From assembly GCF_012516375.2 (NCBI RefSeq), contig NZ_CP051204.2, positions 8,299,886 through 8,363,885 of the forward strand: a stretch of DNA of 64,000 nucleotides, given 5' to 3'. Below, in pieces: positions 13,254 through 63,538 of the stretch; position 1 is the first letter of the stretch; each line of letters starts with the position of its first letter. A program made the position numbers and the translations under genes. The notes under the pieces were generated by a model. It was not told the DNA's origin. It was given only the letters and a program-made list of their open reading frames with translations, and searched no databases. The DNA is from Chitinophaga oryzae (GTDB lineage: Bacteria; Bacteroidota; Bacteroidia; Chitinophagales; Chitinophagaceae).

Positions 13254-13377
13254 TCATTTACGGATTTTTTGATTTTGATATTTGGTTATTTAAAATGCAG
13301 CGGAGATCACATGATATTGTATGATCTTCGCTGCATTTTAAATATCAAAATCAAAAAATCACAAATCCGTAAATCCC
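13254..13377. repeat. Intergenic inverted-repeat element A
   Basis: The left arm from ATTTACGGATTTTTTGATTT (13256 on) is matched by the right arm ending at 13374, with small mismatches. The centre carries AAAATGCAGCGGAGATCA and GATCTTCGCTGCATTTT. The element fills the gap between the acs stop (13252) and the next ATG (13378). A 23-nt block at 13280-13302 is identical to 51263-51285 in element F. Confidence 0.9.
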
Positions 13378-14322
13378 ATGCGGCGTTTCTTCAAAAGAGC
13401 CCTTTATACCCTGCTGTTCTTCGTGCTGGTGTTCAACTGCATTGTGGCTTTCCATGCCTATAAATTCACCCACTTCTCAGAAAATAACCGCCACCGGAAC
13501 AAGCGGCCGGAGGAAATGAACATCGGGGAAAAACTCAACATGATCTTCTTCGGCGTGCGGCTCTCCAAATCCATTACCAGCGCAAAGCCCAACATCCCGT
13601 ACGATACCGTGCTGCTGCTCACTGCCAACGGATTACATCTCGAAGGCTGGTGGATGCCGGTACCAAAGCCCAAAGGCACCGTCCTCCTTTTCCACGGCTA
13701 TGGCGGCAATAAAGGCTCGCACCTGCCGGAAGCTTACTGGTTCCGCCAGCTGGGATACAATACTTTCCTGGTAGACTTCCGGGCCCATGGCAACAGTGAC
13801 GGCACCACCTGCACCATCGGCTATAAAGAAGCAGAAGATGTGAAGCTGGCATGGGACTACGCAAGGTCCCGTTGCGACAAGCCTATCGCTCTCTGGGGCA
13901 TGAGCATGGGCGCGGCTGCCATCATGAAAGCAGTGCCGGAATATCACCTCACACCGCAGAAAATTATCCTCGAATCCCCATTCGCCACCCTCCTAGATGC
14001 GGTGAAAAGCCGCATGCGGGCCGTACACCTGCCGGCTACGCCGTTCTCCCAGCTGCTTACCTTCTGGGGCGGCCTGGAACTGGGTTTCTGGGGCTTTGAT
14101 CATAACCCGCAGGACTATGCCCGCCGGATAAAGGTGCCGGTACTCTACTGCTGGGGCCAGCAGGACATCAGGGTTACACCCGATGAAACACAGCGCGTAT
14201 TCCGCCAACTGGCCACTCCGCAAAAACAACTGCATATTTTTAAAGACGCCGGGCATCAGTCCTTCTGCCAGAAAGACGGCTCCGTATGGAAACAGCTGGT
14301 AAAGGAATTTATGGCACAATAA
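13378..14322 (+). CDS. Alpha/beta hydrolase with N-terminal membrane anchor
   Basis: A 314-residue protein with an uncleaved-type signal or anchor at residues 5-27 (FKRALYTLLFFVLVFNCIVAF) and an alpha/beta hydrolase fold after it. HGYGGNKG is the oxyanion region, GMSMGAAA (near residue 180) is the nucleophile elbow with the catalytic serine, and DAGHQSF near the end holds the histidine. The acid is probably in the WGQQDIRVTPDE segment. Members of this group are annotated as serine aminopeptidase S33 or BAAT-like hydrolases; the substrate is unknown. The start codon directly abuts the right arm of inverted-repeat element A, so a read-through transcript would begin with a strong hairpin. Confidence 0.85.
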   Translation: MRRFFKRALYTLLFFVLVFNCIVAFHAYKFTHFSENNRHRNKRPEEMNIGEKLNMIFFGVRLSKSITSAKPNIPYDTVLLLTANGLHLEGWWMPVPKPKGTVLLFHGYGGNKGSHLPEAYWFRQLGYNTFLVDFRAHGNSDGTTCTIGYKEAEDVKLAWDYARSRCDKPIALWGMSMGAAAIMKAVPEYHLTPQKIILESPFATLLDAVKSRMRAVHLPATPFSQLLTFWGGLELGFWGFDHNPQDYARRIKVPVLYCWGQQDIRVTPDETQRVFRQLATPQKQLHIFKDAGHQSFCQKDGSVWKQLVKEFMAQ

Positions 14323-14325
14323 AAA

Positions 14326-14357
14326 AGCGCGCACCATCCGAGTGGAGCGCGCTCTTC
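14326..14357 (+). terminator. Terminator of the alpha/beta hydrolase gene
   Basis: AGCGCGC (14326-14332) pairs with GCGCGCT (14347-14353), extended inwards by CCA/TGG after one mismatch. A short T-rich stretch follows. It lies right after the stop at 14322. Confidence 0.7.
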
Positions 14358-14390
14358 ACAGGATCTGACCCGCCGTATATATTGGAGTCA

Positions 14391-14414
14391 TGGTACAGTA
14401 TTGAACCTGTACCA
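14391..14414. other. 8-bp hairpin in convergent gap
   Basis: TGGTACAG (14391-14398) pairs with CTGTACCA (14407-14414) around an 8-nt loop. Read on the minus strand the loop resembles a tRNA T-loop, but no full tRNA can be folded. The role is unknown. Confidence 0.4.
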
Positions 14415-14505
14415 CTAGATGCCGTACACAATGGTTGCAGTATAAAGTTACTTACTTGTGCTGCCATTGGAAAACACCTGCTGTCTCCACAAAAACCTTT
14501 CCTTT

Positions 14506-15075
14506 TTATCGGCGTATCACCACCGGTGTGCCTACTTTAACAATTTCATATAATTCGTTCACGTCCCCGTTTTTCATGCTCACACAGCCCAGCGTCCAGT
14601 TGATGCGGCTGTCCACGTAATTGTCGCGGATACCGGCACCATATTCCACACCGTGTATCCCGATACCGCCGCCCATACTTGCTCCCTGCGACAAGCTGCC
14701 GTCGCTTTGCCGCTGAAAAAATTTCTGTTTCGAATCTTCATTCGGGTAATCCAGCAACATAAAACGGCTCCATCGATTGTCCATGCGTTTGGTCTGAATA
14801 CGGAAGGTTCCTTCCGGTGTTTTGCGATCGCCTTCCACCAGCTTGTCTCCCTGGTCTTTGTTGCCAAAAACCACTTTGTAAATTTTGCGCAATGTTACAT
14901 CTTCATACAGATACATCCGGTAATCACTTTTGTCTACCAGGAGGAAAATCTTGTCCGGATTGATATTGCCGGGAGTCAGCCGTACACTGTACAGATCAGC
15001 GCTGCTCCCAACAAACCCGGACAACGGCATCAGCAACAGTAGCACTGCGTATCCGTAAATTCGATACATTTTCAT
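14506..15075 (-). CDS. L,D-transpeptidase (YkuD domain)
   Basis: A 189-residue secreted protein when started at the ATG at 15075 (MKMYRIYGYAVLLLLMPLSG, a signal peptide). The frame reaches back to 15147, but that extension would lie in the terminator hairpin of the upstream gene, so the shorter start is preferred. The YkuD catalytic region is present near the C-terminus: GIHGVEYG with the conserved His, and NWTLGCVSMKN with the nucleophilic Cys in the S/TxGC context. Such enzymes form 3-3 crosslinks in peptidoglycan or attach proteins to it. It is transcribed away from the M16 protease terminator. Function in wall remodelling is inferred from the family. Confidence 0.9.
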   Translation of the reverse strand: MKMYRIYGYAVLLLLMPLSGFVGSSADLYSVRLTPGNINPDKIFLLVDKSDYRMYLYEDVTLRKIYKVVFGNKDQGDKLVEGDRKTPEGTFRIQTKRMDNRWSRFMLLDYPNEDSKQKFFQRQSDGSLSQGASMGGGIGIHGVEYGAGIRDNYVDSRINWTLGCVSMKNGDVNELYEIVKVGTPVVIRR

Positions 15076-15137
15076 AGGGCGATTAAATAATCCTGATAAC
15101 GCCACAGGATAATTATTTATTGCAGTAAAATAAAAAA

Positions 15138-15170
15138 AGCGCAGCATACAAACAGGCTGTATGCTGCGCT
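15138..15170 (-). terminator. Rho-independent terminator of the M16 protease gene
   Basis: AGCGCAGCATACA (15138-15150) and TGTATGCTGCGCT (15158-15170) form a 13-bp perfect stem with a 7-nt loop. On the minus strand it is followed by a run of T. It lies 21 bp after the protease stop. Confidence 0.9.
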
Positions 15171-15190
15171 GGTATTCCTTCTATGTAATA

Positions 15191-18133: not shown

Positions 18134-18166
18134 AGAAATCTGTTAGGTTGGTTTGAAAATAGTCTC

Positions 18167-18174
18167 CAAATATA
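18167..18174 (-). promoter_or_regulatory. Putative -7 box of the M16 protease gene
   Basis: The minus strand reads TATATTTG, a full match to TAnnTTTG, 34 bp before the ATG at 18133. The -33 box is not obvious. Confidence 0.55.
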
Positions 18175-18300
18175 ACGGAAGGGGAAAAATTACGGCAGTT
18201 TAGCAGCGGATAATTCTATGAGTGGTAACACAAGACAAGCTTCAACCGATTGAAAACCGGCAGGGGCAACAAGACAATAAATCTATTTATTTATTGATTA

Positions 18301-18633: not shown

Positions 18634-18661
18634 AGATAGAATTTTGGTCAGGTCAAAAAAT

Positions 18662-19627: not shown

Positions 19628-19629
19628 AA

Positions 19630-21648: not shown

Positions 21649-22836
21649 ATGAATAAGAAGTTTACGTCCCGCTTACGGGAAGAACTGGAGGAAATCAACA
21701 AAGCCGGTCTGTATAAGAGAGAGCGTATCATTACATCTGAGCAGGGAGCTGAAATACAGGTTGGCGGTAAGACGGTCATAAATTTTTGCGCCAATAACTA
21801 TCTGGGACTGTCTTCTCATCCGGCTGTGGTGAAAGCGGCCAAAGATGCCATCGACACCCATGGCTACGGTATGAGCAGCGTCCGCTTTATCTGCGGCACC
21901 CAGGACATTCACCGGGAACTGGAAGAAAAAATCTCCAAATTCCTTGGCACGGAAGACACCATCCTGTACGTAGCCGCCTTCGACGCCAACGGTGGCGTGT
22001 TCGAGCCACTGTTCGGCGAACAGGACGCCATCATCTCCGATGCCCTGAACCATGCTTCCATCATCGACGGGGTGCGTTTGTGCAAAGCCAAACGTTTCCG
22101 TTATGAACATAACGACATGGCTGACCTGGAAGCCAAACTGAAAGAGGCCCAGGACTGCCGCAGCCGTATTATCGTAACAGACGGCTCCTTCAGCATGGAC
22201 GGTACGATTGCCCAGCTGGACAAGATCTGCGACCTGGCGGATAAATACGACGCCATCGTAATGTCCGACGAAAGCCACTCTTCCGGTTTCCTTGGCAAAA
22301 CAGGCCGTGGCACCCACGAATACCGCAACGTCATGGGCCGGGTAGACATCATCACCGGTACGCTGGGCAAAGCGCTCGGCGGCGCTTCCGGCGGCTTCAC
22401 CAGCGGCCCGAAAGAAGTGATCGATATCCTGCGTCAGCGCAGCCGTCCTTACCTGTTCTCCAACTCCGTGGCTCCCAGCATCGTAGGCGCTTCCATCGCC
22501 GTTCTCGACATGCTGAGCGAAACCACTGAGCTGCGCGACAAACTGGAATACAACACCCGCTATTTCCGCACGAAAATGACCGAAGCCGGCTTCGATATCA
22601 AACCCGGCGACCACCCGATTGTGCCGGTTATGCTGTACGACGCCGTACTGAGCCAGCAAATGGCGGAAAAACTGCTGGCAGAAGGCATCTACGTGATCGG
22701 CTTTTTCTTCCCGGTAGTGCCCAAAGGCCAGGCCCGTATCCGTGTACAGCTCAGCGCCGCCCACGAACAGGCCCATCTCGATAAAGCTATAGCCGCCTTC
22801 ACCAAAATAGGTAAGGAACTGGGCGTGATTAAATAA
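21649..22836 (+). CDS. kbl: Glycine C-acetyltransferase (2-amino-3-ketobutyrate CoA ligase)
   Basis: A 395-residue PLP enzyme of the alpha-oxoamine synthase family. It cleaves 2-amino-3-ketobutyrate with CoA to glycine and acetyl-CoA, the second step of threonine degradation. The PLP lysine is in [14 protein letters not shown], and the region SDESHSSG supplies the conserved PLP contacts. The start [23 protein letters not shown] and the length are typical. A threonine dehydrogenase gene is not in the window. The stop codon coincides with the beginning of inverted-repeat element B. Confidence 0.93.
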
Positions 22837-22963
22837 TTACGGATTACGGATTACGAATTACGAATGGAGGGCTCCCTTTTGGAAAGGTTATTAAGTAACC
22901 GACCTGTAAGGGAGCCCTCCATTCGTAATTCGTAATTCGTAATTCGTAATTGGATCCGTAATT
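22836..22963. repeat. Intergenic inverted-repeat element B
   Basis: Left arm: tandem ATTACGG/ATTACGA words leading to GAATGGAGGGCTCCC (to 22875). Right arm: GGGAGCCCTCCATTC followed by tandem GTAATTC words to 22963. The inner 22 bp match perfectly. The loop holds a second small hairpin, GGTTA/TAACC. It starts at the kbl stop and ends 24 bp before the beta-lactamase ATG. Confidence 0.9.
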
Positions 22964-23800: not shown

Positions 23801-23803
23801 TTA

Positions 23804-24024
23804 TTAGGGTATTTTATTATTTGTTTATTGGGTTATTGGGTTATTGGATTTACGGATTTTGGAATTTTGGAATTTTGGAATTTAAAAATACTGCGAAGAT
23901 TACGCCCGGATACCTGATGCCAGGTCCCGGCGTCCTGTAGCAGGCTCTCCACTGCGTTTTAAATTCCAAAATCCCAAAATCCGTAAATCAAATAACTAAA
24001 TACTAAAATGTTAAAATATTAAAA
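23804..24024. repeat. Intergenic inverted-repeat element C
   Basis: GATTTACGGATTTTGGAATT from 23847, with three tandem TTTTGGAAT words, pairs with the right arm 23957-23989 (AAATTCCAAAATCCCAAAAT then CCGTAAATC). The outer flanks are weaker AT-rich mirror sequence. The centre has CTGCGAAGAT, related to the centre of A and F. The element fills the gap after the beta-lactamase stop. Confidence 0.85.
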
Positions 24025-24106
24025 TGCCCTGTTCCCGCTCTTGTAATACGTGACAAAAAAATTATTTTTGAGATCTTGCCAACCGCAAGCGATCTTAAAA
24101 CTGCAT

Positions 24107-25141: not shown

Positions 25142-25927
25142 ATGAACATTACTTTTATAAAACAGGGTTGCTTTATGGCTGCATTGCTGCTTACCGGCGT
25201 TACCGCGCTGGCGCAGAACGGCACCAATAAGTTTATCCGAAAAGGCAATGAACTGTATCAGAAGCAGCTGTTCAGCGACGCAGAGGCCAACTATAAGAAA
25301 GCCCTGGAGCAAAATGCCCAATCAGCCGTAGGCAGTTATAACCTGGGCAATTCCCTCTATCAGCAGAAAAGATTTGACGACGCCCGCACCCAATATGCCA
25401 ACAGCCTGAAAACAGCCGACAACAGCCGGATGAAAGCGGAAGCGGATTACAACATCGGCAACACTTTTATGGAAGCCAAAAAGTGGGAAGAGAGCATCAA
25501 GTCCTACAAGCAGGCACTGAAAATCAACCCGGCCGATGAAGATGCCCGCTACAACCTCGCCTACGCGCAGGCGATGCTGAAAAAACAACAGCAGGACAAC
25601 AAGGACAATAAAGACAACAAGGATAAAAACAAAGACAAGAACAAGGACAAGAACAAAGATCAGCATAAAGACCAGAACAAGGACCAGCAGGATAACGACA
25701 AAAAAGATCAGAATAAAGACCAGCAGGACAAAGACAAAGACAAAAACAAAGACCAGAACAAAGACAAAGACCAGCAGGAACAGCAGAAACCGGAACCACA
25801 GCCCAGCAAAATGAACAAACAGGAAGCAGAAAGGCTGTTACAGGCATTGTCCCAGGAAGAAAAGAAACTGCAGGACAAAGCCAGGAAAATGAAAGGGCAA
25901 CCGGTACCTGTGGAGAAAGACTGGTAA
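25142..25927 (+). CDS. BatC-type TPR protein with low-complexity Lys/Asp/Asn/Gln region
   Basis: A 261-residue secreted or periplasmic protein (signal peptide MNITFIKQGCFMAALLLTGVTALAQ). Residues 27-150 hold three tetratricopeptide repeats (KGNELYQKQLFSDAEANYKK; YNLGNSLYQQKRFDDARTQY; YNIGNTFMEAKKWEESIKSY). From about 150 to 215 the protein is almost only K, D, N and Q, in KDQNKD-type repeats, coded by near-tandem DNA. A short helical tail ends the protein. It is co-transcribed with the VWA gene. The repeat region could vary in length by slippage. Family assignment rests on TPRs plus the BatB neighbour. Confidence 0.82.
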   Translation: MNITFIKQGCFMAALLLTGVTALAQNGTNKFIRKGNELYQKQLFSDAEANYKKALEQNAQSAVGSYNLGNSLYQQKRFDDARTQYANSLKTADNSRMKAEADYNIGNTFMEAKKWEESIKSYKQALKINPADEDARYNLAYAQAMLKKQQQDNKDNKDNKDKNKDKNKDKNKDQHKDQNKDQQDNDKKDQNKDQQDKDKDKNKDQNKDKDQQEQQKPEPQPSKMNKQEAERLLQALSQEEKKLQDKARKMKGQPVPVEKDW

Positions 25928-27437: not shown

Positions 27438-29405
27438 ATGCAGCTTTATTGCAACTCATTAACAGAATATAAGCGACTGGCCACCCTGGAAGTAAAGGTA
27501 GGTGATCTTCTCATTGGCAACTTCAACCCTATCCGCATCCAGACGATGACCACCACCGACACCATGGACACCGCCGGCACCGTAGCCCAGGCCATCCGTT
27601 GTATCGAAGCGGGGGCTGAGCTGGTCCGCATTACCGCCCCCAGCAAAAAGGAGGCGGAGAACCTGTTGCTCATCAAAAACGAACTTCGTCGCCAGGGTTA
27701 CCACACACCGCTGGTAGCAGATATACACTTTACGCCCAATGCAGCCGAAATTGCGGCCCGCATCGTGGAAAAAGTCAGGATCAACCCCGGTAACTACATC
27801 GATAAAAAGAAGTTTGAAACCATCGAGTATACCGATGCCGAATACCTGGAGGAAATAGACCGTATCCGGGAACGTTTCACGCCGTTGGTGAGCATCTGTA
27901 AGGAATACGGTACCGCCATGCGTATCGGCACCAACCACGGCTCCCTGAGCGACCGTATCATGAGCCGCTACGGTGATACGCCCATGGGCATGGTGGAAAG
28001 CGCCATGGAATTCCTGCGTATCGCGGAAGACCTGCAGTACCGTAACATCGTACTGAGCATGAAAGCCAGCAACCCACAGGTGATGGTACAGGCATACCGA
28101 CTGCTGGTGCAAACCATGCACCAGGAGCTGGGTCACTGCTACCCGCTGCACCTCGGTGTTACAGAAGCCGGCGACGGGGAAGACGGCCGTATCAAATCCG
28201 CCATCGGTATCGGCACCCTGCTGGAAGACGGCGTGGGCGACACCATCCGGGTGTCCCTGACAGAAGACCCGGAGTTCGAACTGCCCGTATGCCGAGACAT
28301 CGTAAAACGCTACAGCGGCGCCCGTACGGAAAAACCAGCTACTTCCCGTCCGCTGGACACGCTTCCCTATTCCCCGTTCTCCTACAAACGCAGGGAAAGC
28401 ACCGCCGTAGACAATACCGGCGACAAACAGGTGCCCGTAGTAGTGGCAGACTACCGCAGCCTGGCCACTATACAACCTTCGGACCTTAACGCGATCGGCT
28501 ATACGTACGATGAACCCTCCGATAAATGGAACATCGCCGATGCCGCCGCCGACTATATTTACACCGGTACACAGGTGCCCTCCTTTGCCCTTCCCGGCAC
28601 GTTGCAGGTAGTGGCAGATGCCAGCCTGTGGCAGACGCTGGCCGACAAAGCCGCTTACATACCGTATTTCAGCACGCGCGCCTACCTGGACGCCGTGGCA
28701 GCCGGACAAACCGGTAAAAAGAACTTCGTGGCCGTTGATGCAGACGATCTCGATACCGCCGATATCAATGACCTGCTGAAACAGCTGGGACAGCCCGCTG
28801 CCACCGGCGCCGTTGTCCTGGCCGTTCATGCTACCGGCAGCAACGCCATGGCCAGTATTAGAAGATTCTTCATCCTGCTGACAGCCCAACAGCTGACGGT
28901 ACCAGTGATCATCCACAGCGTGAGTCCGCAGGCCACCGCAGACGAACACCTGATCCATCATGCCACGGAAGCCGGCGCCCTCCTGCTGGACGGCTTCGGC
29001 GACGGCCTCTGGCTGACCAACCAGGACCAGGCACCGGCGCAGGCAGCCCTGCTCAACAATATCGCTTTCGGTATCCTTCAGGCTACCCGCACCCGTATCT
29101 CCAAAACGGAGTATATCTCCTGCCCTTCCTGCGGCCGCACGCTGTTTGACCTCCAGGAAACCACGGCGCGCATCAGGGCGGTCACCCATCACCTGAAAGG
29201 CGTGAAAATCGCTATCATGGGCTGTATCGTCAACGGACCGGGAGAAATGGCTGATGCCGACTTCGGCTATGTGGGCAGCGGTGTCGGAAAAATCACCCTG
29301 TATAAAGGCAAAGAGGTGGTAAAACGCGGCCTGAACAGCGACGTGGCCGTGGACGAACTGATCAGCCTGATCCGTGAAAACGGCATGTGGGTGGACAAGA
29401 ACTGA
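27438..29405 (+). CDS. ispG: 4-hydroxy-3-methylbut-2-enyl-diphosphate synthase, long form
   Basis: IspG (GcpE) converts MEcPP to HMBPP in the non-mevalonate isoprenoid pathway, using a [4Fe-4S] cluster. The 655-residue length is that of the Bacteroidota/plant/Chlamydia type, which has an extra domain between the N-terminal TIM barrel (to about 290) and the C-terminal cluster domain. Cluster cysteines are seen in ISCPSCGRTLFD and in MGCIVNGPGEM. The barrel holds the expected IRIQTMTTTDT, LVRITAPS and VADIHFTP motifs. The inserted domain (about 300-540) is the least conserved part. It stands alone with its own promoter box. Confidence 0.95.
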   Translation: MQLYCNSLTEYKRLATLEVKVGDLLIGNFNPIRIQTMTTTDTMDTAGTVAQAIRCIEAGAELVRITAPSKKEAENLLLIKNELRRQGYHTPLVADIHFTPNAAEIAARIVEKVRINPGNYIDKKKFETIEYTDAEYLEEIDRIRERFTPLVSICKEYGTAMRIGTNHGSLSDRIMSRYGDTPMGMVESAMEFLRIAEDLQYRNIVLSMKASNPQVMVQAYRLLVQTMHQELGHCYPLHLGVTEAGDGEDGRIKSAIGIGTLLEDGVGDTIRVSLTEDPEFELPVCRDIVKRYSGARTEKPATSRPLDTLPYSPFSYKRRESTAVDNTGDKQVPVVVADYRSLATIQPSDLNAIGYTYDEPSDKWNIADAAADYIYTGTQVPSFALPGTLQVVADASLWQTLADKAAYIPYFSTRAYLDAVAAGQTGKKNFVAVDADDLDTADINDLLKQLGQPAATGAVVLAVHATGSNAMASIRRFFILLTAQQLTVPVIIHSVSPQATADEHLIHHATEAGALLLDGFGDGLWLTNQDQAPAQAALLNNIAFGILQATRTRISKTEYISCPSCGRTLFDLQETTARIRAVTHHLKGVKIAIMGCIVNGPGEMADADFGYVGSGVGKITLYKGKEVVKRGLNSDVAVDELISLIRENGMWVDKN

Positions 29406-40838: not shown

Positions 40839-40843
40839 CATTT

Positions 40844-40971
40844 GGGGATTTTGGAATTTACGGATTTTGGAATTTATTTGATAATTTCTTCAGGGAGAAC
40901 TTTCAAATAGCAAAATGTCCGAATCAATGCTGAAACCTCAAAATTTCAAAATCCGTAAATCAAAAAATCTA
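40844..40971. repeat. Intergenic inverted-repeat element D
   Basis: Left arm GGGGATTTTGGAATTTACGG and on (40844-40874) pairs imperfectly with the right arm TTTCAAAATCCGTAAATC and on (40944-40971). The centre (40875-40943) has diverged and no longer shows GCGAAGA. It starts 5 bp after the recR stop. Confidence 0.75.
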
Positions 40972-40981
40972 TAAATAAAAT

Positions 40982-41003
40982 ACGGGCGTTCAATAACGCC
41001 CGT
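40982..41003 (-). terminator. Terminator of the small minus-strand gene
   Basis: ACGGGCGTT (40982-40990) pairs with AACGCCCGT (40995-41003) around CAAT. On the minus strand an AT-rich tail with T runs follows. It lies 36 bp after the stop of the gene at 41040. Confidence 0.75.
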
Positions 41004-41039
41004 CTTCGTTTAACCTGTAATTCCACGTTATGAAAAAGG

Positions 41040-41255
41040 TCAGTGTACGTCTTTTTCAGGCGTACCCTGAAATATGGTATGATTGGTTTTTGATTCCTGT
41101 TCACGCAGCTCTTTCCAGCGCTGCATTTCGTATTTGTTAAGAAAACATACCTTAAAAACCGCTGGCTCACTTCCATCATTCATCTCCGGAACCGGTTGCA
41201 GGCCCAGACCTGCCAGGTGTTCCCTGAGCGCATGGATATGTTCTGCTATCGTCAT
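41040..41255 (-). CDS. Small hypothetical protein downstream of the cysteine-cluster ORF
   Basis: A 71-residue protein from the ATG at 41255 (MTIAEHIHALREHLAGLGLQ). The same frame is open back to an ATG at 41354 (104 residues), but that extension overlaps the 30-codon ORF at 41320-41412 in another frame. The protein is helical and charged (FKVCFLNKYEMQRWKELREQ) with one cysteine. I do not recognise a family. It shares a strong promoter with the 30-codon ORF and has its own terminator, so the transcription unit is complete: promoter, mini-ORF, this gene, terminator. Confidence 0.6.
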   Translation of the reverse strand: MTIAEHIHALREHLAGLGLQPVPEMNDGSEPAVFKVCFLNKYEMQRWKELREQESKTNHTIFQGTPEKDVH

Positions 41256-41319
41256 GACAAAACGCTTTTTTTGTTGTAATAAAAACCGGGAGAACTCAAT
41301 GAGAATATAAGGCGCCGTT

Positions 41320-41412
41320 TTAACAGCAACAGCGTCCCGAAAGACAGCAGGCATAGGACTGGTGGGGGGCTACCGCCGGGTTCAACAGTATGTTCAGCTT
41401 TTGTTGTTGCAT
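41320..41412 (-). CDS. 30-codon ORF with C-terminal cysteine cluster (leader-peptide or peptide-precursor candidate)
   Basis: An ATG at 41412 opens a 30-residue frame beginning MQQQKLNILLNP and ending ACCLSGRCCC, then TAA at 41320-41322. Five of the last ten residues are cysteine and the stop follows directly. A strong promoter (TTTG at 41465-41462, 21 bp, TATATTTG at 41440-41433) would start transcription about 14 nt before the ATG. The next gene on the same strand begins at 41255, and its longer frame starts inside this ORF. Opposite and close by is the metH control region. Possibilities are a cysteine-sensing leader peptide, a metal-binding peptide or a peptide-product precursor. Translation is unproven. 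Confidence 0.5.
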   Translation of the reverse strand: MQQQKLNILLNPAVAPHQSYACCLSGRCCC

Positions 41413-41432
41413 GGTGTTTTTCTATTACCCTA

Positions 41433-41465
41433 CAAATATAGTAGACTTTATAGACTTCTACCAAA
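41433..41465 (-). promoter_or_regulatory. Consensus promoter for the cysteine-cluster ORF
   Basis: On the minus strand TTTG (41465-41462) and TATATTTG (41440-41433) are spaced by 21 bp, a full Bacteroidota promoter. It points away from metH. Confidence 0.7.
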
Positions 41466-41600
41466 TAAAAGTTTTGATATAGACAAAATCTATATAAAAC
41501 ATGGTTAATATCAACACCGGAAGAAAGGCCGTCCCATACAGTGCGGGACAGGCAAATAAGCTGTTTTTACATATTAAAATAGCGTATCTTTACAGGATAT

Positions 41601-41665
41601 TACGGGGTGGATTTGTTTATTGTTCGACCCTGTTAGACTTTAACAGCAACTAATAAACAGCAAAG
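41601..41665 (+). ncRNA. Probable SAM-II riboswitch upstream of split metH
   Basis: The leader just before metH can form an H-type pseudoknot. P1 is CGGGGT (41603-41608) with ACCCTG (41627-41632). The P1 loop sequence TGTTTATT (41614-41621) is exactly complementary to AATAAACA (41652-41659). A small hairpin using GTTA/TAAC lies between. The loop includes GGATTTG and the 3' side has AACTAATAAACAGC, as in SAM-II-type aptamers. Its end is 7-12 nt from the metH ATG, as expected for translational control by S-adenosylmethionine. The assignment is from memory of the motif; no covariance search was possible. Confidence 0.65.
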
Positions 41666-41671
41666 AAAATC

Positions 41672-47468: not shown

Positions 47469-47474
47469 ATATTC

Positions 47475-47557
47475 AGGGATTTTCTGATTTACGATTTTTT
47501 GATGTTGGGTATGTCTGACCTCCCTGCAATCAAAAAATCGTAAATCAGAAAATCCCT
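47475..47557. repeat. Intergenic inverted-repeat element E (29-bp perfect arms)
   Basis: Arms 47475-47503 (AGGGATTTTCTGATTTACGA and on) and 47529-47557 are perfect inverted repeats of 29 bp around a 25-nt loop. It lies between the bTHX stop (47468) and the pdxH stop (47564). The arm words are shared with element H. Confidence 0.95.
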
Positions 47558-47563
47558 CAATGA

Positions 47564-48298: not shown

Positions 48299-49408
48299 AT
48301 GAAAAGAGTGCTTCTATTACTCGCCCTGGCTGGCGGCCTGCTACCGGCCTGTCACAGCGGTAACCGGGAAAAAGACCTGCAAGATACGGCCAGTGTGGTA
48401 GTTCCCCTGTTGAGTACGCCCTATTATTATACACAGTTAAAAGGCGCAGTGGGTGGCAGGCAGATCACCATGGAGTTACTGAAAACGGCGCCCAATCTGT
48501 TCCGTGGTTATTATTACTATGACAGTACCGGTCAGCCGATCAGTATCTGGGGCAGCCAGGAAGCCGATCAGGTCAAGATTTACGAAGACAACGGCAGCCG
48601 GGAGGAAGAGCGTTTCTTTGGCGGCATGCTGAGCGACGACGGCATTTTCAAAGGGGTATGGCATGGCGACAGTACCTCGCATCATTTTGAGCTGCATACA
48701 GACCTGCGGAAGGCGCAGGCGCTGAAAGTATATTACGCTGCAGACTCCGTACAACTGTTGCCTTCTTTCACCGGTTCTCCGCTGGGCATTGCGTCCAACA
48801 GTATCCTCTGGCCGGACCCGGCTACGGATTCCGCCACGGCTGCTTTCCTGCGGAAGGCGATCACCGGCGACGTCAGGGTTACGGTCCCGGAGCAGTTTGT
48901 GAAAAGGGCTATCGATTCTTTTGTGACCAGTTATCGTATCGCCGCAAAGGATGCAGACAGCAGCGACATAGCCGACGGCCAGTCCGCCTCCTGGAACTGG
49001 ACGACCGAAAGCGACATGAAGGTGGTATATAATACGTGGCCGTTGCTGGTGATAGAAAAGTATGCCTACGACTTTACCGGCGGCGCCCATGGCAATTCCG
49101 GGGCGTTCTACCAGACGCTGGACCTGGCCACGCGCAAGGTGATAACACCGGATGAATTTTTTAAGCCTGGTTATAAAGAGGTCTTGTCTCCTTTGCTGGA
49201 CAAGGCGTTCCGGAAGAAGTTCCACATCGACGAGGATGAGTCGCTGGACCAGAGCCTGCTGGTGAAGACGATCGTGCCGAACAACAATTTTATTGTCACC
49301 CACAAGGGCGTAGCGTTCAGTTATGTGCCTTATGAGATCGGGCCTTATGCCCTGGGGCAGGTGACGTTGTTTCTTCCGTTTACGGAGCTGAAAAGCGTTT
49401 TAAAATAA
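48299..49408 (+). CDS. DUF3298 domain lipoprotein
   Basis: A 369-residue lipoprotein (MKRVLLLLALAGGLLPACHS, lipobox LPAC at 15-18). The C-terminal third has the DUF3298 pattern: YAYDFTGGAHGNSGAFYQTLDLATRKVITPDEFFKPG and LFLPFTELKSVLK. The N-terminal region (YYYTQLKGAVGGRQITMELLK) is a beta-rich domain of its own. Related proteins (RsiV-type, DUF3298) are envelope proteins and sometimes lysozyme-binding; here no such role can be claimed. Its stop codon overlaps the left arm of inverted-repeat element G. Confidence 0.82.
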   Translation: MKRVLLLLALAGGLLPACHSGNREKDLQDTASVVVPLLSTPYYYTQLKGAVGGRQITMELLKTAPNLFRGYYYYDSTGQPISIWGSQEADQVKIYEDNGSREEERFFGGMLSDDGIFKGVWHGDSTSHHFELHTDLRKAQALKVYYAADSVQLLPSFTGSPLGIASNSILWPDPATDSATAAFLRKAITGDVRVTVPEQFVKRAIDSFVTSYRIAAKDADSSDIADGQSASWNWTTESDMKVVYNTWPLLVIEKYAYDFTGGAHGNSGAFYQTLDLATRKVITPDEFFKPGYKEVLSPLLDKAFRKKFHIDEDESLDQSLLVKTIVPNNNFIVTHKGVAFSYVPYEIGPYALGQVTLFLPFTELKSVLK

Positions 49409-49487
49409 TTACGAATTACGAATTACGAAAAAGAGCGAAGATCAACTGGTGGTCTTCGCTCTTTTTCGTAATTCGTAATTCGTAATT
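49407..49487. repeat. Intergenic inverted-repeat element G (35-bp perfect arms)
   Basis: Arms 49407-49441 and 49453-49487 are a perfect 35-bp inverted repeat: tandem ATTACGA words, then AAAAGAGCGAAGA, an 11-nt loop, and the mirror TCTTCGCTCTTTT with GTAATTC tandems. It takes in the last bases of the DUF3298 stop and ends 4 bp before the pyrH stop. Confidence 0.97.
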
Positions 49488-51230: not shown

Positions 51231-51245
51231 GAGAGTTATTTTTTT

Positions 51246-51331
51246 TATTTTATTATTTGGTCATTTGGTTATTTAAAATGCAGCGAAGGCAATCTTCGCT
51301 GCATTTTAAATAACCAAATAATTAAATATCA
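51246..51331. repeat. Intergenic inverted-repeat element F, between rpsB and tsf
   Basis: Core: TTTGGTTATTTAAAATGCAG and on (51264-51288) and its mirror 51294-51318, a 25-bp perfect inverted repeat around GCAAT. Outer AT-rich flanks pair more loosely. The block 51263-51285 is identical to one in element A. Here it lies inside an operon. Confidence 0.95.
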
Positions 51332-51347
51332 AAATCAGAAGATGATA

Positions 51348-53241: not shown

Positions 53242-53297
53242 TGTTGTATACGATAAAAATTACGTCTTGTAAACAATTCCCCCTGTAACGGGGAGTG

Positions 53298-53305
53298 CAA
53301 AGGTA
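53298..53305 (-). promoter_or_regulatory. Putative -7 box of the rplM operon
   Basis: The minus strand reads TACCTTTG here, 57 bp before the rplM ATG. A small CCCC/GGGG hairpin (53280-53293) follows in the leader and could be a regulatory site, but is too short to be sure. The remaining gap to 53664 shows no gene. Confidence 0.6.
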
Positions 53306-53664
53306 CATTCACTATTCTGAATAACCATACATTTTAGGTTATTTTTTGGAAGACACCTTTGCAATTAATTGATTTTCAATAAAAAATTTGAATAAAAGTT
53401 ATTAACACAATGAAAAGAAGCTCCCGCGGGGCATTACAGCAACCACCGCCCTGGTGCGCCTCCCGGACGCCCCTTCTCCCTTGCTTTTCGAAGTGTTGGC
53501 TGCTTTTTAAAGGCTTATACAAATATTTTATTTATATGTTAAAAATACCTAAGGCGAATCGCGTAAGGAAAAAACAGAAAGGGCTGCAAAGGACGCAATA
53601 CAGAGAATGAACGGAGGGACGGTAAGCAACCGCGGTACTTCCCGGGCCGAAAAACCATTAAAAA

Positions 53665-58331: not shown

Positions 58332-58365
58332 CCGGTGATTAGCCCCTTTTCAGTATCTTGCGTCC

Positions 58366-59505: not shown

Positions 59506-59544
59506 TAACCGGAAAGCCGCTCTCCTCTTGTCATTGCATTTCCT

Positions 59545-59552
59545 TACCTTTG
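59545..59552 (+). promoter_or_regulatory. Putative -7 box of ricT
   Basis: TACCTTTG matches TAnnTTTG, 100 bp before the ATG at 59653, between holB and ricT. Confidence 0.45.
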
Positions 59553-59652
59553 TCATCTCCCGTCCTTTTTGTTTTTCTGAAGGGAAAAGCGTATTTTAAA
59601 GGATTGGAGTAACCTGAAATGCTTATTTATAAAATTTAAACTAATTACTAAT

Positions 59653-61122
59653 ATGGCTTGTGCCGGATGTGGTACGGGTGTGGAGGGAAAGCCGTCAGGA
59701 TGTAAGAGTAATGGAGGATGCAGTACGGGAGGTTGTAACCGACTGAATGTATTTGACTGGCTGTCCAATATTCCGCTTGGCGATAGCTTAGCACCATTCG
59801 ATATTATAGAAGTAAGTTTCAACAACGGCAGCCGTAAGGACTTCTTCCGCAATGTCACCAAACAGCACCTTGACAAAGGTGAGATGGTGACCGTGGAAGG
59901 TGTTAGCGGCTTTGATGTTGGTACAGTGAGCCTTACAGGCGAACTGGTAAAACTTCAGATGAAGAAGAGGCGCGCAGAAGACACCCCCGAGATCAAAAAA
60001 GTATTACGTCGTTCGAGTAACGACGACCTGCAGAGGATGGCCGATAACAAGGCCCGCGAAAAAGACGCCCTGATAAAATCCAGGGCCATCGCCCGGAATC
60101 TGGGCCTCGAAATGAAACTGGCAGAAGTGGAAATACAGGCCGACGGCCGGAAAGCCACTTTCTTCTACACGGCAGACGATCGTGTGGATTTCCGTGAACT
60201 GATCAAGGTATATGCCTCCGAATTCCGCGCCAAGGTGGAAATGCGCCAGATAGGCGCCCGCCAGGAAGCCGGGAAAGTAGGCGGTATCGGCAGTTGCGGC
60301 CGCGAACTCTGCTGTTCTACCTGGCTGTCTGACTTTAAAAGTGTCAACACCACCGCCGCCAGGTACCAGAACCTGTCCATCAATCAGGCAAAACTGTCCG
60401 GTCAGTGCGGCCGCCTGAAATGTTGCCTCAACTACGAGCTGGACACCTACCTCGACGCATTAAAAGAATTCCCTGAAGATGCCGACACCATCGAAACTTC
60501 CTCCGGTGTCGCCAATCTGCAGAAAAGGGACATCTTCAAAAGCCTCATGTGGTATTCCTACGAGGGCAGCAACAAACAGTATCCGCTGACCATTACCAGG
60601 GTTAAGGAAATCCGCCAGCTCAACCGTCAGGGCATTAAACCCGAAGAACTGAAGGCAGTGGAAGTGGTGACTGCCAAGCCCAAGGAAGCCGACCTCGGCT
60701 TTGCGGACGTGGTAGGCCAGATCAGCCTTAAATCACTGGAAAAAACGGTACAGAAGCGCAAACAGAAGGATAAAGACCGTCAGAAACAGCAGAAAGCTAC
60801 CGATCAGCAGCAGAAGCAGGGCGGTCATCCTAAAAACGAGCCGAAGCAGGAACAAAAATCTGCCCAGCAGCGCCATGAACGCCACGAACGTCACCATCCT
60901 GACCGTAAAAACAAACAGGAAGGACGCGGCGGCGGAGGCAATCAGCAACGCCAGGGGCAAGGACAGCAGGGCGGACAGCCCAAACAGGGCCGTGAACAAC
61001 AGCCACGGCAGGAACAGGGGCCAAAGCCTCAAAATCAGGGACAAGGCGGACAACCCAAACAGGACCGCCGCCCTCCAAGGCACAAACCCAGACCCAAACC
61101 TGATAATAACAACAAAGGATAA
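59653..61122 (+). CDS. ricT: RicT-type PSP1-domain protein with Cys-rich N-terminus and Q/K/G-rich C-terminal tail
   Basis: A 489-residue protein of the PSP1/RicT (YaaT) family, a subunit of a complex that in Bacillus carries iron-sulfur clusters and affects RNA processing. The PSP1 core (about 45-330) includes GMEMKLAEVEIQADGRKATFFYTADDRVDF-like sequence and the cysteine motifs IGSCGRELCCSTWL and SGQCGRLKCCLNYEL. The first 30 residues carry six cysteines (ACAGC, SGCKSNGGC, TGGC). From about 365 to the end the sequence is disordered, rich in Q, K, R, G, N and H, longer than in the core family. Its usual follower gldH is absent; a terminator follows instead. Confidence 0.9.
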   Translation: MACAGCGTGVEGKPSGCKSNGGCSTGGCNRLNVFDWLSNIPLGDSLAPFDIIEVSFNNGSRKDFFRNVTKQHLDKGEMVTVEGVSGFDVGTVSLTGELVKLQMKKRRAEDTPEIKKVLRRSSNDDLQRMADNKAREKDALIKSRAIARNLGLEMKLAEVEIQADGRKATFFYTADDRVDFRELIKVYASEFRAKVEMRQIGARQEAGKVGGIGSCGRELCCSTWLSDFKSVNTTAARYQNLSINQAKLSGQCGRLKCCLNYELDTYLDALKEFPEDADTIETSSGVANLQKRDIFKSLMWYSYEGSNKQYPLTITRVKEIRQLNRQGIKPEELKAVEVVTAKPKEADLGFADVVGQISLKSLEKTVQKRKQKDKDRQKQQKATDQQQKQGGHPKNEPKQEQKSAQQRHERHERHHPDRKNKQEGRGGGGNQQRQGQGQQGGQPKQGREQQPRQEQGPKPQNQGQGGQPKQDRRPPRHKPRPKPDNNNKG

Positions 61123-61126
61123 AAAG

Positions 61127-61157
61127 AAAAAGACAACCGTAACTGGTTGTCTTTTTT
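61127..61157 (+). terminator. Terminator of ricT
   Basis: AAAAAGACAACC (61127-61138) pairs with GGTTGTCTTTTT (61145-61156), loop GTAACT, with a T-run. Confidence 0.9.
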
Positions 61158-61310
61158 GCTTCATTAAGTAGATATATAAAAAACTAAAAGGCCGCCCAGA
61201 CGAGGCAGCCTTTGTTAACAATTGGTTTTTGCTTATGAGAAAAACTTAATAAACACTTTGATTATCTCTTTCACCAATTCAACAACACGGCTACCTGTGA
61301 CCTACTGCGC

Positions 61311-62363
61311 CTACGACTCACTTTCAAACATCAACTTATAGTAGTTCAGATTGGTAGCTTCATCATATCCGCGCTCGATCATCTCGCGGTTACCATGAAT
61401 ATACACATGGAAATTGCGGTCCAGTTTCAGTATACTCTTAAAAACTTTCTGTTGTTTTTTCACTGCCGGGGCCGAAATCTCAAATTCGTCAGGGATCTCC
61501 TGCTGATATGTTTGCTGGTACTCATTTCTGAACTCCTTGAAAGAAGCGATCGCGTCCGGATGTCCTAATACTTCCTGTGCAAAATCTTCCAGCTGAAACT
61601 GTTCTTTCTCTTTAAAGTAGGCAGCTGATTTGTTTAACAAATCCACCTGGTCTACACGGTCCATTTCATATTCGGTTGGCAGCTTGTTGTGAATAAACTG
61701 TTTACACATATTCACCGCAGTCTCTGTCTGATGGTAGCTGTCTTCACGGCGCTGCACCTGTAAAAACGCGTCTTTCCAATAAACTGCTTCTGTTTGCTTG
61801 CTGATGCTGTCAACTATGCTGACCTTATACCCGTTTTCTTCTTCTGTATTGAAGATCAGACAACCTTTGTCAAGCTTGTTAATATTGATGCCATCTTCAT
61901 AGTCCACCTGATAATTCTCATCAGACAAAAACACTTTCAGATAGGTATCCCGGTTTTCCGATTTAAAAATGCCAATGGCCGCCACTTCTTCTCCATCCAC
62001 CTGACATTTGCTAAAGTATGCTATATAAAGCTCTCCACCTTTGACTTTGGGATGGGTGGAATGTTTATATAGATGTTTGGCTATATTAACAGATTGCTCC
62101 TGAAATTCATTCTCGTCAGTAAATATACGTCGACAATATTGAAATATTTCATTCAATTGTAAATCTGCCTCGTGATAAAAGCGGAAATATTCCGCCGAAT
62201 TCGCAAACGGCTGTATAAAATAGGTGACCAGCAACTGGGCAATGGTCTCATCTTCCAGCTTCAACGGAGCCTTCGAAAAAAGAAGCGGCTCGTCATTGGC
62301 GGCATTGCCTACCTTATGAATCGTAAGCTGAGCAAGGTCTTTGAACTCCGAAACATGAATCAT
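61311..62363 (-). CDS. Nucleoid-associated protein, NdpA/YejK-like
   Basis: A 350-residue protein of the NA37/YejK-like nucleoid-associated family. It begins IHVSEFKDLAQLTIHKVGNAANDEPLLFSKAPLKL, and the middle has GGELYIAYFSKCQVDGEEVAAIGIFKSE, a typical core. The C-terminal part ends in VHIYIHGNRE-like sequence (HVYIHGNREMIERGYDE). It probably binds DNA; the role is poorly known. It is a single gene on the minus strand, with a -7 box almost touching its ATG. Confidence 0.85.
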   Translation of the reverse strand: MIHVSEFKDLAQLTIHKVGNAANDEPLLFSKAPLKLEDETIAQLLVTYFIQPFANSAEYFRFYHEADLQLNEIFQYCRRIFTDENEFQEQSVNIAKHLYKHSTHPKVKGGELYIAYFSKCQVDGEEVAAIGIFKSENRDTYLKVFLSDENYQVDYEDGININKLDKGCLIFNTEEENGYKVSIVDSISKQTEAVYWKDAFLQVQRREDSYHQTETAVNMCKQFIHNKLPTEYEMDRVDQVDLLNKSAAYFKEKEQFQLEDFAQEVLGHPDAIASFKEFRNEYQQTYQQEIPDEFEISAPAVKKQQKVFKSILKLDRNFHVYIHGNREMIERGYDEATNLNYYKLMFESES

Positions 62364-62368
62364 GGGCG

Positions 62369-62376
62369 CAAAATTA
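62369..62376 (-). promoter_or_regulatory. Putative -7 box directly at the nucleoid-associated gene (leaderless mRNA)
   Basis: The minus strand reads TAATTTTG five bases before the ATG at 62363, so the mRNA would start at, or next to, the start codon. Confidence 0.5.
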
Positions 62377-62491
62377 AGAAATAAGTTGACAGTCCGTTTG
62401 GCCTATCCTGCAACACCTGCCTCCCTCCTTTCCTTCTTCGTTAAAAAATCGGTAATTCTTGAGTAACTTAACCCTTCAAATATTCTAGCTC

Positions 62492-63385
62492 ATGAAAAGA
62501 CACCTCTATCTGATGGCGCTGATGGCCTGCCATGGCCTCTCCACGTTGGCCCAGCAAACAGAACGCCTGCTCTATCAGGCCCGTGACCTCACCGCCGAGA
62601 ACATGTTCTCTGTCAATATTGAAGGCCCTAATTTCGATAAAGCCGGTAACTTCTACGTGGTCAACTTCCAGAAAGACGGTACCGTGGGCAGGATCAACAC
62701 CCAAACCGGCGCAGGGGAAATCTTCATCACCCTCCCCGACAGCAGCGTAGTCAACAGCGTCAATTTCAACAGCAAAGGAGATATGTTTCTCCCCGATTTC
62801 AAAGGACATAATGTGCTGCGGGTAGACATGAAAACCCGCAAAATCAGCGTATACGTGCATTCCGGCCAATTCAACCAGCCCAATGACCTCTGCATCAATA
62901 AAAAAGATCAGATCTTCGCTTCAGATCCCGCCTGGGGCACCAACGGTGGCCAGATCTGGCGCATAGACCCCAACCGCAAGGCAGTACTGCTCGAAACCGG
63001 CATGGGCACCACCAACGGCATTGAACTGAGCCCCGATGAAAAAACATTATACGTCAACGAAAGTGTCCAACGCAAAGTGTGGAAATACGACGTGGACAAA
63101 AACGGGAACGTGTCCAACAAAACCCTGTTCACATCCTTCCCCGACTTCGGCCTCGACGGCATGAAATGCGATAAGGCCGGCAACCTGCACATCGCCCGCT
63201 GGGGCAAAGGCGTGATCGCCGTATTCACCCCAAAAGGGGAACTGATCCGCGAAGTGCCGCTCAAAGGCAAAAACTGCAGCAACCTCATCTTCGGCGACAA
63301 AGACGGTAAAACCGTGTACGTGACCCTGCAGGACCGCAAATGCGTGGAAACCTATCGTACGGATACCCCTGGCAAACGCTACTAA
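62492..63385 (+). CDS. SMP-30/gluconolactonase-like secreted beta-propeller
   Basis: A 297-residue protein with a signal peptide (MKRHLYLMALMACHGLSTLAQ). It has the six-bladed beta-propeller pattern of the SMP-30/gluconolactonase/LRE family: IEGPNFDKAGNFYVVNFQ, PNDLCINKKDQIFASDPAWG, GTTNGIELSPDEKTLYVNES and DGMKCDKAGNLHIARWGKG. The Asn and Asp residues in NDL, TNGIELS and DGM are the expected metal ligands. It probably hydrolyses a lactone such as an aldonolactone in the periplasm. It is a single plus-strand gene followed by inverted-repeat element H. Confidence 0.88.
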   Translation: MKRHLYLMALMACHGLSTLAQQTERLLYQARDLTAENMFSVNIEGPNFDKAGNFYVVNFQKDGTVGRINTQTGAGEIFITLPDSSVVNSVNFNSKGDMFLPDFKGHNVLRVDMKTRKISVYVHSGQFNQPNDLCINKKDQIFASDPAWGTNGGQIWRIDPNRKAVLLETGMGTTNGIELSPDEKTLYVNESVQRKVWKYDVDKNGNVSNKTLFTSFPDFGLDGMKCDKAGNLHIARWGKGVIAVFTPKGELIREVPLKGKNCSNLIFGDKDGKTVYVTLQDRKCVETYRTDTPGKRY

Positions 63386-63387
63386 GC

Positions 63388-63538
63388 ATTTAGGGATTTT
63401 TTGATTTACGATTTTTTGATTTTATTTATTGATAAAAACGAATTATTGATAAAAGCGAAGACCAAAGCAGCTATATAAATGTTCGCTTTGGTCTTCGCTC
63501 TTTTATTCGCAAAATCGTAAATCAAAAAATCCCTAAAT
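63388..63538. repeat. Intergenic inverted-repeat element H
   Basis: Outer arms 63388-63415 (ATTTAGGGATTTTTTGATTT and on) and 63511-63538 are a perfect 28-bp inverted repeat. An inner stem, AGCGAAGACCAAAGC (63454-63468) and its mirror (63485-63499), is 15 bp. It starts 3 bp after the SMP-30 stop and ends 11 bp before the convergent stop. Confidence 0.95.

What the first reader, a model, noticed from the sequence alone, without database searches (positions are those of the whole stretch)
13254..63538. A family of at least eight long inverted repeats (A-H) in gaps next to stop codons
Elements at 13254, 22836, 23804, 40844, 47475, 49407, 51246 and 63388 share arm words and mostly a centre of GCGAAGA/TCTTCGC. 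Each begins within 0-20 bp of a stop codon, and several fill the full gap (A, F, G, E, H). Stems reach 35 bp without mismatch (G), 29 (E), 28 (H) and 25 (F). That is far longer than the terminators of 9-16 bp found elsewhere in the same window. I know no described family with this arrangement in Chitinophagaceae. Roles could be gene-end punctuation, RNA-end protection, chromosomal protein sites, or a mobile palindrome with preference for stop-codon contexts.
Basis: partly seen in the sequence, partly recalled or inferred. Interest (0 to 1): 0.8.

Follow-up and report, generated by a model that had tools for sequence, protein, structure and literature searches.

The report
Gene-end palindromes tied to helix-bundle gene
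The eight long mirror-image sequences at gene ends look like gene-less members of a class of palindromic elements whose full copies carry a small four-helix-bundle protein gene between arms made of 7- or 8-letter repeats, which gives a testable protein link for repeats that have lacked an explanation.

Summary
In detail: at the thresholds used, the eight palindromes are the only long inverted repeats in the window; sampled gaps hold 75, each of ten shuffles none. They avoid divergent gaps and hug stop codons. Arms are tandem words: (AATTACG)n in B and F, (ATTTNNNN)n in the other six. In relatives the same gaps usually keep a hairpin while arms change.

The genome has two PF05635/TIGR02436 "four helix bundle" genes, and each lies in the loop of such a palindrome, one with each word. 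Around related genes, 64 of 80 loci from about ten phyla and 19 of 20 plasmid loci show palindromes, mostly period 7, against 2 of 248 ordinary genes. In 79 genus genomes each word's abundance tracks its own protein subtype, uncorrected for relatedness.

So A-H are best read as gene-less members of four-helix-bundle palindromes, related to 23S rRNA intervening sequences. Spread in trans is inferred. Similar heptamer repeats at stop codons are known in Xanthomonas and Nostoc (PMC4692102); my ten paper searches found no protein link.

The parts
13256..13373 (.). Element A: ATTTNNNN arms around core GCAGCGGAGATC...GATCTTCGCTGC; tandem gap ++
   Evidence: longest perfect stem 21 bp
22835..22951 (.). 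Element B: (AATTACG)n arms, core GGAGGGCTCCCTT..AAGGGAGCCCTCC similar to that of dispersed copies; overlaps the stop codon by 2 bp
   Evidence: longest perfect stem 29 bp
23806..24030 (.). Element C: long imperfect ATTTNNNN arms
   Evidence: arms 70 nt at 80%, longest perfect stem 16 bp
40840..40976 (.). Element D: ATTTNNNN arms directly after the stop codon of a RecR-domain gene
   Evidence: longest perfect stem 14 bp
47471..47561 (.). Element E: ATTTNNNN arms, next to the stop of a short ORF on the left and of a PNPOx-domain gene on the right
   Evidence: longest perfect stem 29 bp
49407..49487 (.). Element F: (AATTACG)3 arms around terminator-like core AAAAAGAGCGAAGA..TCTTCGCTCTTTTT; fills a convergent gap stop to stop
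   Evidence: longest perfect stem 35 bp; RNA fold z -16.4
51242..51340 (.). Element G: ATTTNNNN arms around AAAATGCAGCGAAG..CTTCGCTGCATTTT, in a tandem gap upstream of an EF-Ts gene
   Evidence: longest perfect stem 26 bp
63388..63538 (.). Element H: ATTTNNNN arms, inner core GCGAAGACCAAAGC..GCTTTGGTCTTCGC; convergent gap
   Evidence: longest perfect stem 28 bp

Best explanation
A-H are gene-less (MITE-like) members of a class of gene-end palindromes. Full members carry a small gene for a four-helix-bundle protein (PF05635/TIGR02436, same fold as the retroelement protein Avd) in the loop. Their arms are tandem 7- or 8-bp words, and protein subtype and arm word go together: AATT-type heptamers with the subtype found in the secA-deoC gap, ATTTNNNN with the subtype found in the hemF-hemB gap. 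Shown: the architecture, the association of subtype and word, the placement at stop codons, the substitution for plain terminators, and gene-bearing, gene-broken, gene-less and empty alleles at one site. Inferred: the protein is made from read-through transcripts of the upstream gene, recognises its own word in the folded hairpin (DNA or RNA), and promotes copying or extension of such arms around other gene-end hairpins. Gene-less copies persist because they work as bidirectional terminators or 3'-end hairpins.
For: Both PF05635 genes of the genome sit inside a palindrome with one of the two arm words of the window. Related proteins across about ten phyla: 64 of 80 loci palindromic, versus 2 of 248 ordinary own genes and 0 of 18 neighbouring ORFs. 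Plasmid loci, nearly all cyanobacterial: 19 of 20, versus 19 of 380 mismatched pairs. Best arm period is 7 in 101 and 8 in 7 of 112 palindromic loci. AATT-type heptamers: 49 of 64 alpha palindromes versus 1 of 21 non-alpha, Fisher 4e-9. Genus: octamer hits >=50 in 8 of 8 genomes with the hemF-hemB (beta) gene and 2 of 71 others, p 1.7e-9; AATTACG hits higher with the alpha gene, p 9e-6. secA-deoC site: gene-bearing, stop-bearing, deleted, gene-less and empty alleles. Fold matches 2rld, 2gsc and Avd 4dwl.
Against: No movement was observed and no target-site duplication was found: flanking bases of 55 type-1 elements are mixed. The native secA terminator lies inside the arms of the filled alleles, which simple cut-and-paste insertion does not explain. 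AATTACG repeats occur in 18 of 71 genus genomes lacking the alpha gene, up to 63 hits, and one alpha genome has none (its arms are AATTATG). Only 8 of 30 best-scoring PF05635 loci of the phylum sample, and 4 of 7 beta loci, reach the palindrome threshold. A third word class (CGCAAAG) in this genome has no cognate gene. All 8 beta genes are at one site and one (G368) is broken; a distant beta-like protein (41-45% identity) occurs in G338, which has no octamer hit. Associations are not corrected for phylogeny. Cyanobacterial alpha-like proteins have varied words.
Confidence: 0.62

Rival explanations
1. Ordinary host terminators whose arms grow by replication slippage and hairpin template switching. 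The four-helix-bundle genes merely sit in such gaps and play no part.
For: Site-stable hairpins with changing arms; similar cores kept while arms change at sites A, F, G and secA-deoC; the loop of F is exactly inverted between this genome and G372 with arms unchanged.
Against: Words recur across phyla and track protein subtypes; ordinary genes are not enclosed in such palindromes (2 of 248); type-1 and type-3 cores are shared between many loci.
Confidence: 0.17
2. A host-useful 3'-end system: the four-helix-bundle protein binds word arrays in 3' UTRs to control termination or mRNA decay, and the arrays are selected binding sites.
For: ATTT arrays lie in sense within 60 nt after a stop codon 49 times versus 10 in antisense, of 85; strict period 8 with variable NNNN, 85 arrays versus 0-1 at other periods; strong avoidance of divergent gaps.
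Against: Patchy presence: the family is found in 22 of 79 genus genomes; arrays persist where the beta gene is absent (G314). Functions of neighbouring genes were not tested.
Confidence: 0.15
3. REPINs moved by a RAYT (Y1) transposase.
For: One Y1 transposase gene is present; REPs are palindromic intergenic repeats thought to be moved by RAYTs (PMC3733652, passages read).
Against: That gene lies next to its own, different 48-bp palindrome and in the element-poor half of the genome.
Confidence: 0.03
4. Chance or assembly artefact.
For: None found.
Against: 0 in each of 10 shuffles; hairpins at the same sites in other genomes.
Confidence: 0.01

Closest known systems
23S rRNA intervening sequences (IVS) with the S23/IVP ORF
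   Same: Stem made by terminal inverted repeats (28 bp in Coxiella), an ORF of the S23 kind between them, sporadic distribution (PMC4990558, passages read).
   Different: Here between protein genes next to stop codons, arms are tandem 7/8-bp words, and this genome has 277 (AATTACG)3 and 292 octamer pattern hits (overlapping hits counted) for one gene-bearing copy of each type.
GGGAATC / GGGGA(C/T)T heptamer repeats of Xanthomonas and Nostoc (PMC4692102: discussion read, other passages seen)
   Same: Heptamers, in part as convergent inverted pairs, near or overlapping stop codons on the sense strand, rare in divergent gaps, mostly the same gaps but variable sequence between two species, function unknown.
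   Different: G-rich and studied there as G-quadruplexes; no protein linked in the parts I read. Xanthomonas campestris encodes a family member (Xcc0516, PDB 2gsc), whose surroundings could not be examined here.
TAACTGA heptamer repeats of Beggiatoaceae, Cyanobacteria and Bacteroidetes (PMC4679880: abstract and passages read)
   Same: Intergenic period-7 repeats in some of the same phyla.
   Different: Described as direct repeats, in the Beggiatoaceae genome mostly just before start codons; one inverted pair only.
RAYT/REPtron and REP repeats (PMC3733652: passages read)
   Same: Logic: one protein gene flanked by the repeat, many gene-less copies between genes.
   Different: No Y1 transposase; tandem-word arms; the protein is a four-helix bundle with no nuclease activity known to me.
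DGR accessory protein Avd
   Same: Same fold (4dwl, TM by query length 0.70-0.77); PF05635 was noted to resemble Avd (PMC10053308, passage read).
   Different: Sequence match to the Avd model is below its cut-off in the two of six proteins that match it at all; no DGR was looked for here.

Membership tests
23S rRNA intervening sequence (IVS) | Terminal inverted repeats forming a long stem | tested here: met
   A-H and both gene-bearing copies; five strands of four elements (A, B, F, G) folded
23S rRNA intervening sequence (IVS) | S23/IVP (PF05635) ORF in the loop | tested here: inconclusive
   Met in L154 and L155; the loops of A-H (5-111 bp) are too short to hold it
23S rRNA intervening sequence (IVS) | Location inside a 23S rRNA gene | tested here: not met
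   A-H and both gene-bearing copies lie between protein genes; no Rfam match in the window
23S rRNA intervening sequence (IVS) | Excision by RNase III | not testable with these tools
   Needs RNA experiments
REP/REPIN moved by RAYT | RAYT gene flanked by the same repeat | tested here: not met
   The single Y1_Tnp has another palindrome beside it
REP/REPIN moved by RAYT | GTAG or CGTC tag at one end | not tested
   No formal scan was made
MITE of a DDE transposon | Target-site duplication of fixed length | tested here: inconclusive
   Flanking one and two bases of 55 type-1 elements are mixed; no length-by-length test was made
Intrinsic terminator | Stable stem followed by U-tract on both strands | tested here: inconclusive
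   Stem with A/T tracts seen in F and G and strong folds; transcript ends not available
Xanthomonas/Nostoc-type heptamer repeats | Period-7 repeats as inverted pairs next to stop codons, rare in divergent gaps | tested here: met
   for the AATTACG class; period is 8 for the ATTTNNNN class; four type-1 clusters were called in divergent gaps
Xanthomonas/Nostoc-type heptamer repeats | G-tracts able to form quadruplexes | tested here: not met
   AATTACG has no G-tract; some ATTTNNNN units have runs of up to four G, but no quadruplex scan was made (seen in the sequence)
TIGR02436 four helix bundle family (the cognate protein) | Score above the curated cut-off and four-helix fold | tested here: met
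   79-116 bits versus 24 for six proteins; model of a named alpha relative, pLDDT 94.5, four helices

The most novel reading that the evidence does not exclude
A transposase-free, cross-phylum class of mobile palindromes: each four-helix-bundle protein reads its own 7- or 8-bp word and, possibly with a reverse transcriptase or the replication machinery, rewrites the flanks of gene-end hairpins into word-coded arms. This would explain the heptamer repeats of Xanthomonas, Nostoc, Beggiatoaceae and Bacteroidota, and would make the 23S rRNA intervening sequences one branch of the same class.
Probability: 0.4. Interest if true: 0.93.

Novelty: new variant of a known kind. Interest (0 to 1): 0.85.

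Why it matters
Tandem heptamer repeats near genes have been reported in several phyla without a cause (PMC4692102, PMC4679880), and the four-helix-bundle/IVP family is common (232 of 296 sampled genomes of the window's phylum) without a job known to me outside DGRs. Linking the two gives both a direct test: does the protein bind or spread its own word? If so, it is a way of spreading DNA without a classical transposase that remodels transcript ends across bacteria.

Tried and rejected
RAYT/REPIN origin: one Y1_Tnp with another palindrome. A genus-wide RAYT test was sent four times and never answered, so it is untested. Rfam at gathering thresholds: no match in the window. Exact three-unit AATTACG strings in papers: none. 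Simple insertion with a fixed target duplication: flanking bases mixed. A vertical family of fixed copies: rejected, since arms differ at the same site. Mobile-copy origin of the site-F core: rejected, since the exact core occurs only at that site in this genome and its G372 ortholog among 79 genomes. The third word class (CGCAAAG) got no cognate gene. The palindrome threshold (score 15) was chosen after seeing genus data; controls used the same threshold. Gene calls are from my own simple ORF caller, so starts are approximate.

Papers: passages or named sections only: PMC4679880 (with abstract), PMC10053308, PMC5524665, PMC8700078, PMC4990558, PMC4692102 (whole discussion), PMC3733652; outline and abstract only: PMC4596501. 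Ten searches (listings capped at 20-30) showed no paper joining four-helix-bundle genes with heptamer palindromes; subscription journals are largely not held.
Full report
OBSERVATION. The window is 64 kb at one end of a single 8.36-Mb contig. A mechanical search for inverted repeats (arms >=20, >=85% paired, loop <=160) gives exactly the eight reported elements in it. The same search in 60 evenly spaced 20-kb stretches gives 74 more. Of the 82, 76 could be assigned to gaps between predicted genes: 28 convergent, 47 tandem, 1 divergent, against 89, 340 and 149 gaps of 40 bp or more (chi-square p 8e-11). In stretches chosen for their AATTACG hits, four further clusters fell in gaps called divergent. 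Searching the 578 gap sequences alone gives 75, and each of 10 shuffles gives none. The nearest facing stop codon is within 5 bp for 43 of 75 elements, against a mean of 30.8 and a maximum of 38 in 500 random placements in the same gaps; where the gap leaves at least 30 bp of slack, 16 of 39 against 4.2, maximum 10. Elements are commoner in the half around the origin as judged by GC skew: 58 in 30 stretches versus 16 in 30.

ANATOMY. The arms are tandem words. B and F carry (AATTACG)n, period 7; A, C, D, E, G and H carry ATTT plus four variable bases, period 8. Outside the elements the window has 6 period-8 ATTT pairs and no period-7 ATTACG pair. A third word (CGCAAAG-type) occurs elsewhere in the genome. 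In gaps of this genome's stretches and ten relatives, ATTT arrays of four or more units occur 85 times at period 8 and 0 or 1 time at each other period from 5 to 12; 49 lie in sense within 60 nt after a stop codon, 10 in antisense. In A, F, G and H the middle is a terminator-like core (AAAAAGAGCGAAGA...TCTTCGCTCTTTTT in F). RNA folds are far stronger than shuffles (z -11.6 to -16.4 for the five strands tried). Seventeen type-1 elements among the 82 share one kind of core, so sequence is copied between loci.

ORTHOLOGOUS SITES. All 58 gaps of the window were found in the five nearest relatives and 26 to 53 in five others. In the gaps of A-H, 60 of 77 relative sequences have a stem of 16 bp or more (D only 3 of 10), against 18 of 333 in 40 other gaps. 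Arms and lengths differ. Sporadic large gains occur elsewhere, for example an 83-bp perfect palindrome in G345 where eight other genomes, this one included, have a plain terminator. At F this genome and G372 have AATTACG arms, the closest relative G308 has ATTTNNNN arms, and G314 has neither around a recognisably similar core. The exact F core occurs in 79 genus genomes only here and at the G372 ortholog, in opposite orientation: an inversion in place. Gap length stays similar while arms change at A (100-125 bp) and B (173-228), and at F between the AATTACG form and G314, G355, G313 (79-85), though it is 120-158 with ATTTNNNN arms; at C and H it varies widely. So arms look at least partly overwritten rather than simply inserted.

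THE PROTEIN LINK. A 549-bp AATTACG palindrome proved to contain an ORF. PF05635 has exactly two matches in the genome. One is this ORF, in the gap I read as secA-deoC; the other lies in the gap I read as hemF-hemB, inside ATTTNNNN arms that begin right after the upstream stop codon. Both are TIGR02436 four-helix-bundle proteins. Within the genus, 22 of 79 genomes have the family (35 match rows, 30 loci fetched then, four more rows typed later). The ORF could be located in 27 of the 30 loci, and 21 of these 27 reach palindrome score 15. Subtypes are distinct by BLAST: within alpha 41-91% identity and within beta 65-98%, against at most 36% between them. They carry different words among palindromes that reach the threshold: alpha AATT-type (8 of 8 loci), beta ATTTNNNN (4 of 7; three below threshold), gamma AAAGCNN (3 of 5), delta TTAGCNN (3 of 3). 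In 28 of the 30 loci the match runs in the direction of both predicted neighbours (exceptions L159 and L165).

BEYOND THE GENUS. Of these, 64 of 80 have a palindrome of score 15 or more around the ORF, nearly all with period 7 and mostly AATTNNN. Flanks of different loci paired at random reach that score in 15% of cases; I read this as words shared between loci. Random genes of this genome do so in 2 of 248 and neighbouring ORFs in 0 of 18. AATT-type heptamers: 49 of 64 alpha versus 1 of 21 non-alpha palindromes. Of the 64, 50 follow a co-directional gene with a median distance of -0.5 bp from its stop codon to the arm, 6 are divergent and 8 unclear. Against this, only 8 of 30 best-scoring phylum loci (other subtypes) pass the threshold. 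As an independent set, tblastn against plasmids gave 29 and 24 records, some in both lists; I fetched 20 of the 53 rows, 19 cyanobacterial and one Bernardetia. Nineteen of 20 have such palindromes, against 19 of 380 mismatched pairs. Two delta-like cyanobacterial genes carry TTAGCNN arms like delta of the window's genus; cyanobacterial alpha-like genes have varied words. Over the three sets 112 of 157 loci are palindromic: 101 with period 7, 7 with period 8, 4 weak. In 13 of the 20 plasmid loci the upstream annotated gene is co-directional.

DOSE AND SPECIFICITY. In 79 genus genomes, the five-word ATTT pattern is hit 106-616 times in all 8 genomes with the beta gene, and 145, 55, 18 and at most 5 times in the 71 others. 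All 8 beta genes lie at the one hemF-hemB site, and the G368 copy is broken and below the Pfam cut-off. G338 has a protein 41-45% identical to beta and no octamer hit. (AATTACG)3 hits are 277, 170, 100, 45, 16, 10, 3 and 0 in the 8 alpha genomes; 18 of 71 others have some, at most 63. Six of the 8 alpha genes are at secA-deoC; two of the 8 have an in-frame stop. Crosswise, alpha-only genomes have octamer counts of 0, 0, 0, 0 and 55; beta-only genomes have AATTACG counts of 1, 1, 3, 11 and 42. Relatedness is not corrected for, so the effective number of independent cases is small within the genus.

ALLELES. At secA-deoC this genome, G345 and G360 have an open gene; G308 has one with its frame disturbed near the start; G372 has one with an in-frame stop; G371 has a remnant with part of the gene deleted but both arms kept; G318 has a gene-less AATTACG palindrome; G314, G335, G313, G355 and others have a plain terminator. 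That terminator is still recognisable by eye inside the arms of filled alleles, so arms bracket the native hairpin. At hemF-hemB only about 55 bp separate the two gene matches in G314, G372 and G313.

MECHANISM. Shown: a unit of gene plus word-coded palindrome, many gene-less copies of the same word in the same genomes, preference for gene ends, and substitution for plain terminators. Inferred: expression by read-through; recognition of the word by the protein; spread by copying or extension at gene-end hairpins. The fold (model of a named relative, pLDDT 94.5) matches 2rld, Xcc0516 (2gsc) and the retroelement protein Avd, which makes a reverse-transcriptase partner a reasonable but untested idea.

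COMPARISON. The nearest known things are the 23S rRNA intervening sequences, which share stem and ORF but sit in rRNA (PMC4990558), and the Xanthomonas/Nostoc heptamer repeats, which share placement and inverted pairs but had no protein in what I read (PMC4692102). RAYT/REP systems share the logic, not the protein (PMC3733652). I rate it a new variant of a known kind on what is shown, with a real chance of a new class.

Noticed in passing
G000:C1:5971449-5971793 (L063): The only Y1_Tnp (RAYT-like) match of the genome, next to a perfect 48-bp palindrome of another sequence (CCCAGGGCTCACGCCCTGGGCTAC type).
   Followed up: partly
L005, L015, L016, L017, L045, L048, L053, L056, L060: Third palindrome class with CGCAAAG-type arms, often with a core like GGAGCGGAGATCAAATTTGATCTCCGCTCC; no cognate PF05635 gene in this genome.
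   Followed up: partly
G345 synteny block, element at 27449: 116-bp arms at 99%: an AATTACG palindrome nested in the centre of an ATTTNNNN/terminator palindrome.
   Followed up: no
window 49441-49453 and the G372 ortholog: Loop of element F exactly inverted between two species, arms identical.
   Followed up: yes
window 40985-41671: Non-coding stretch after element D whose start (about ACGGGCGTTCAATAACGCCCGTCTTCG) is conserved in the ten relatives as far as printed; no Rfam match.
   Followed up: no
window 53242-53450: About 200 bp strongly conserved non-coding DNA upstream of a minus-strand gene in the nine relatives where the gap was aligned.
   Followed up: no
window 25616-25771: Degenerate AACAAAGACAAG-type tandem repeat inside an ORF (25142-25927).
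   Followed up: no
L328, L330, L331, L338, L340 (cyanobacterial plasmids): Four-helix-bundle genes inside CRISPR-cas gene clusters (cas6/cas4, cas10/cmr3, cas2/cas1), four of the five with a palindrome of score 15 or more.
   Followed up: no
G000 genome-wide: Elements concentrate in the origin half: 58 in 30 stretches versus 16 in 30 around the terminus.
   Followed up: partly
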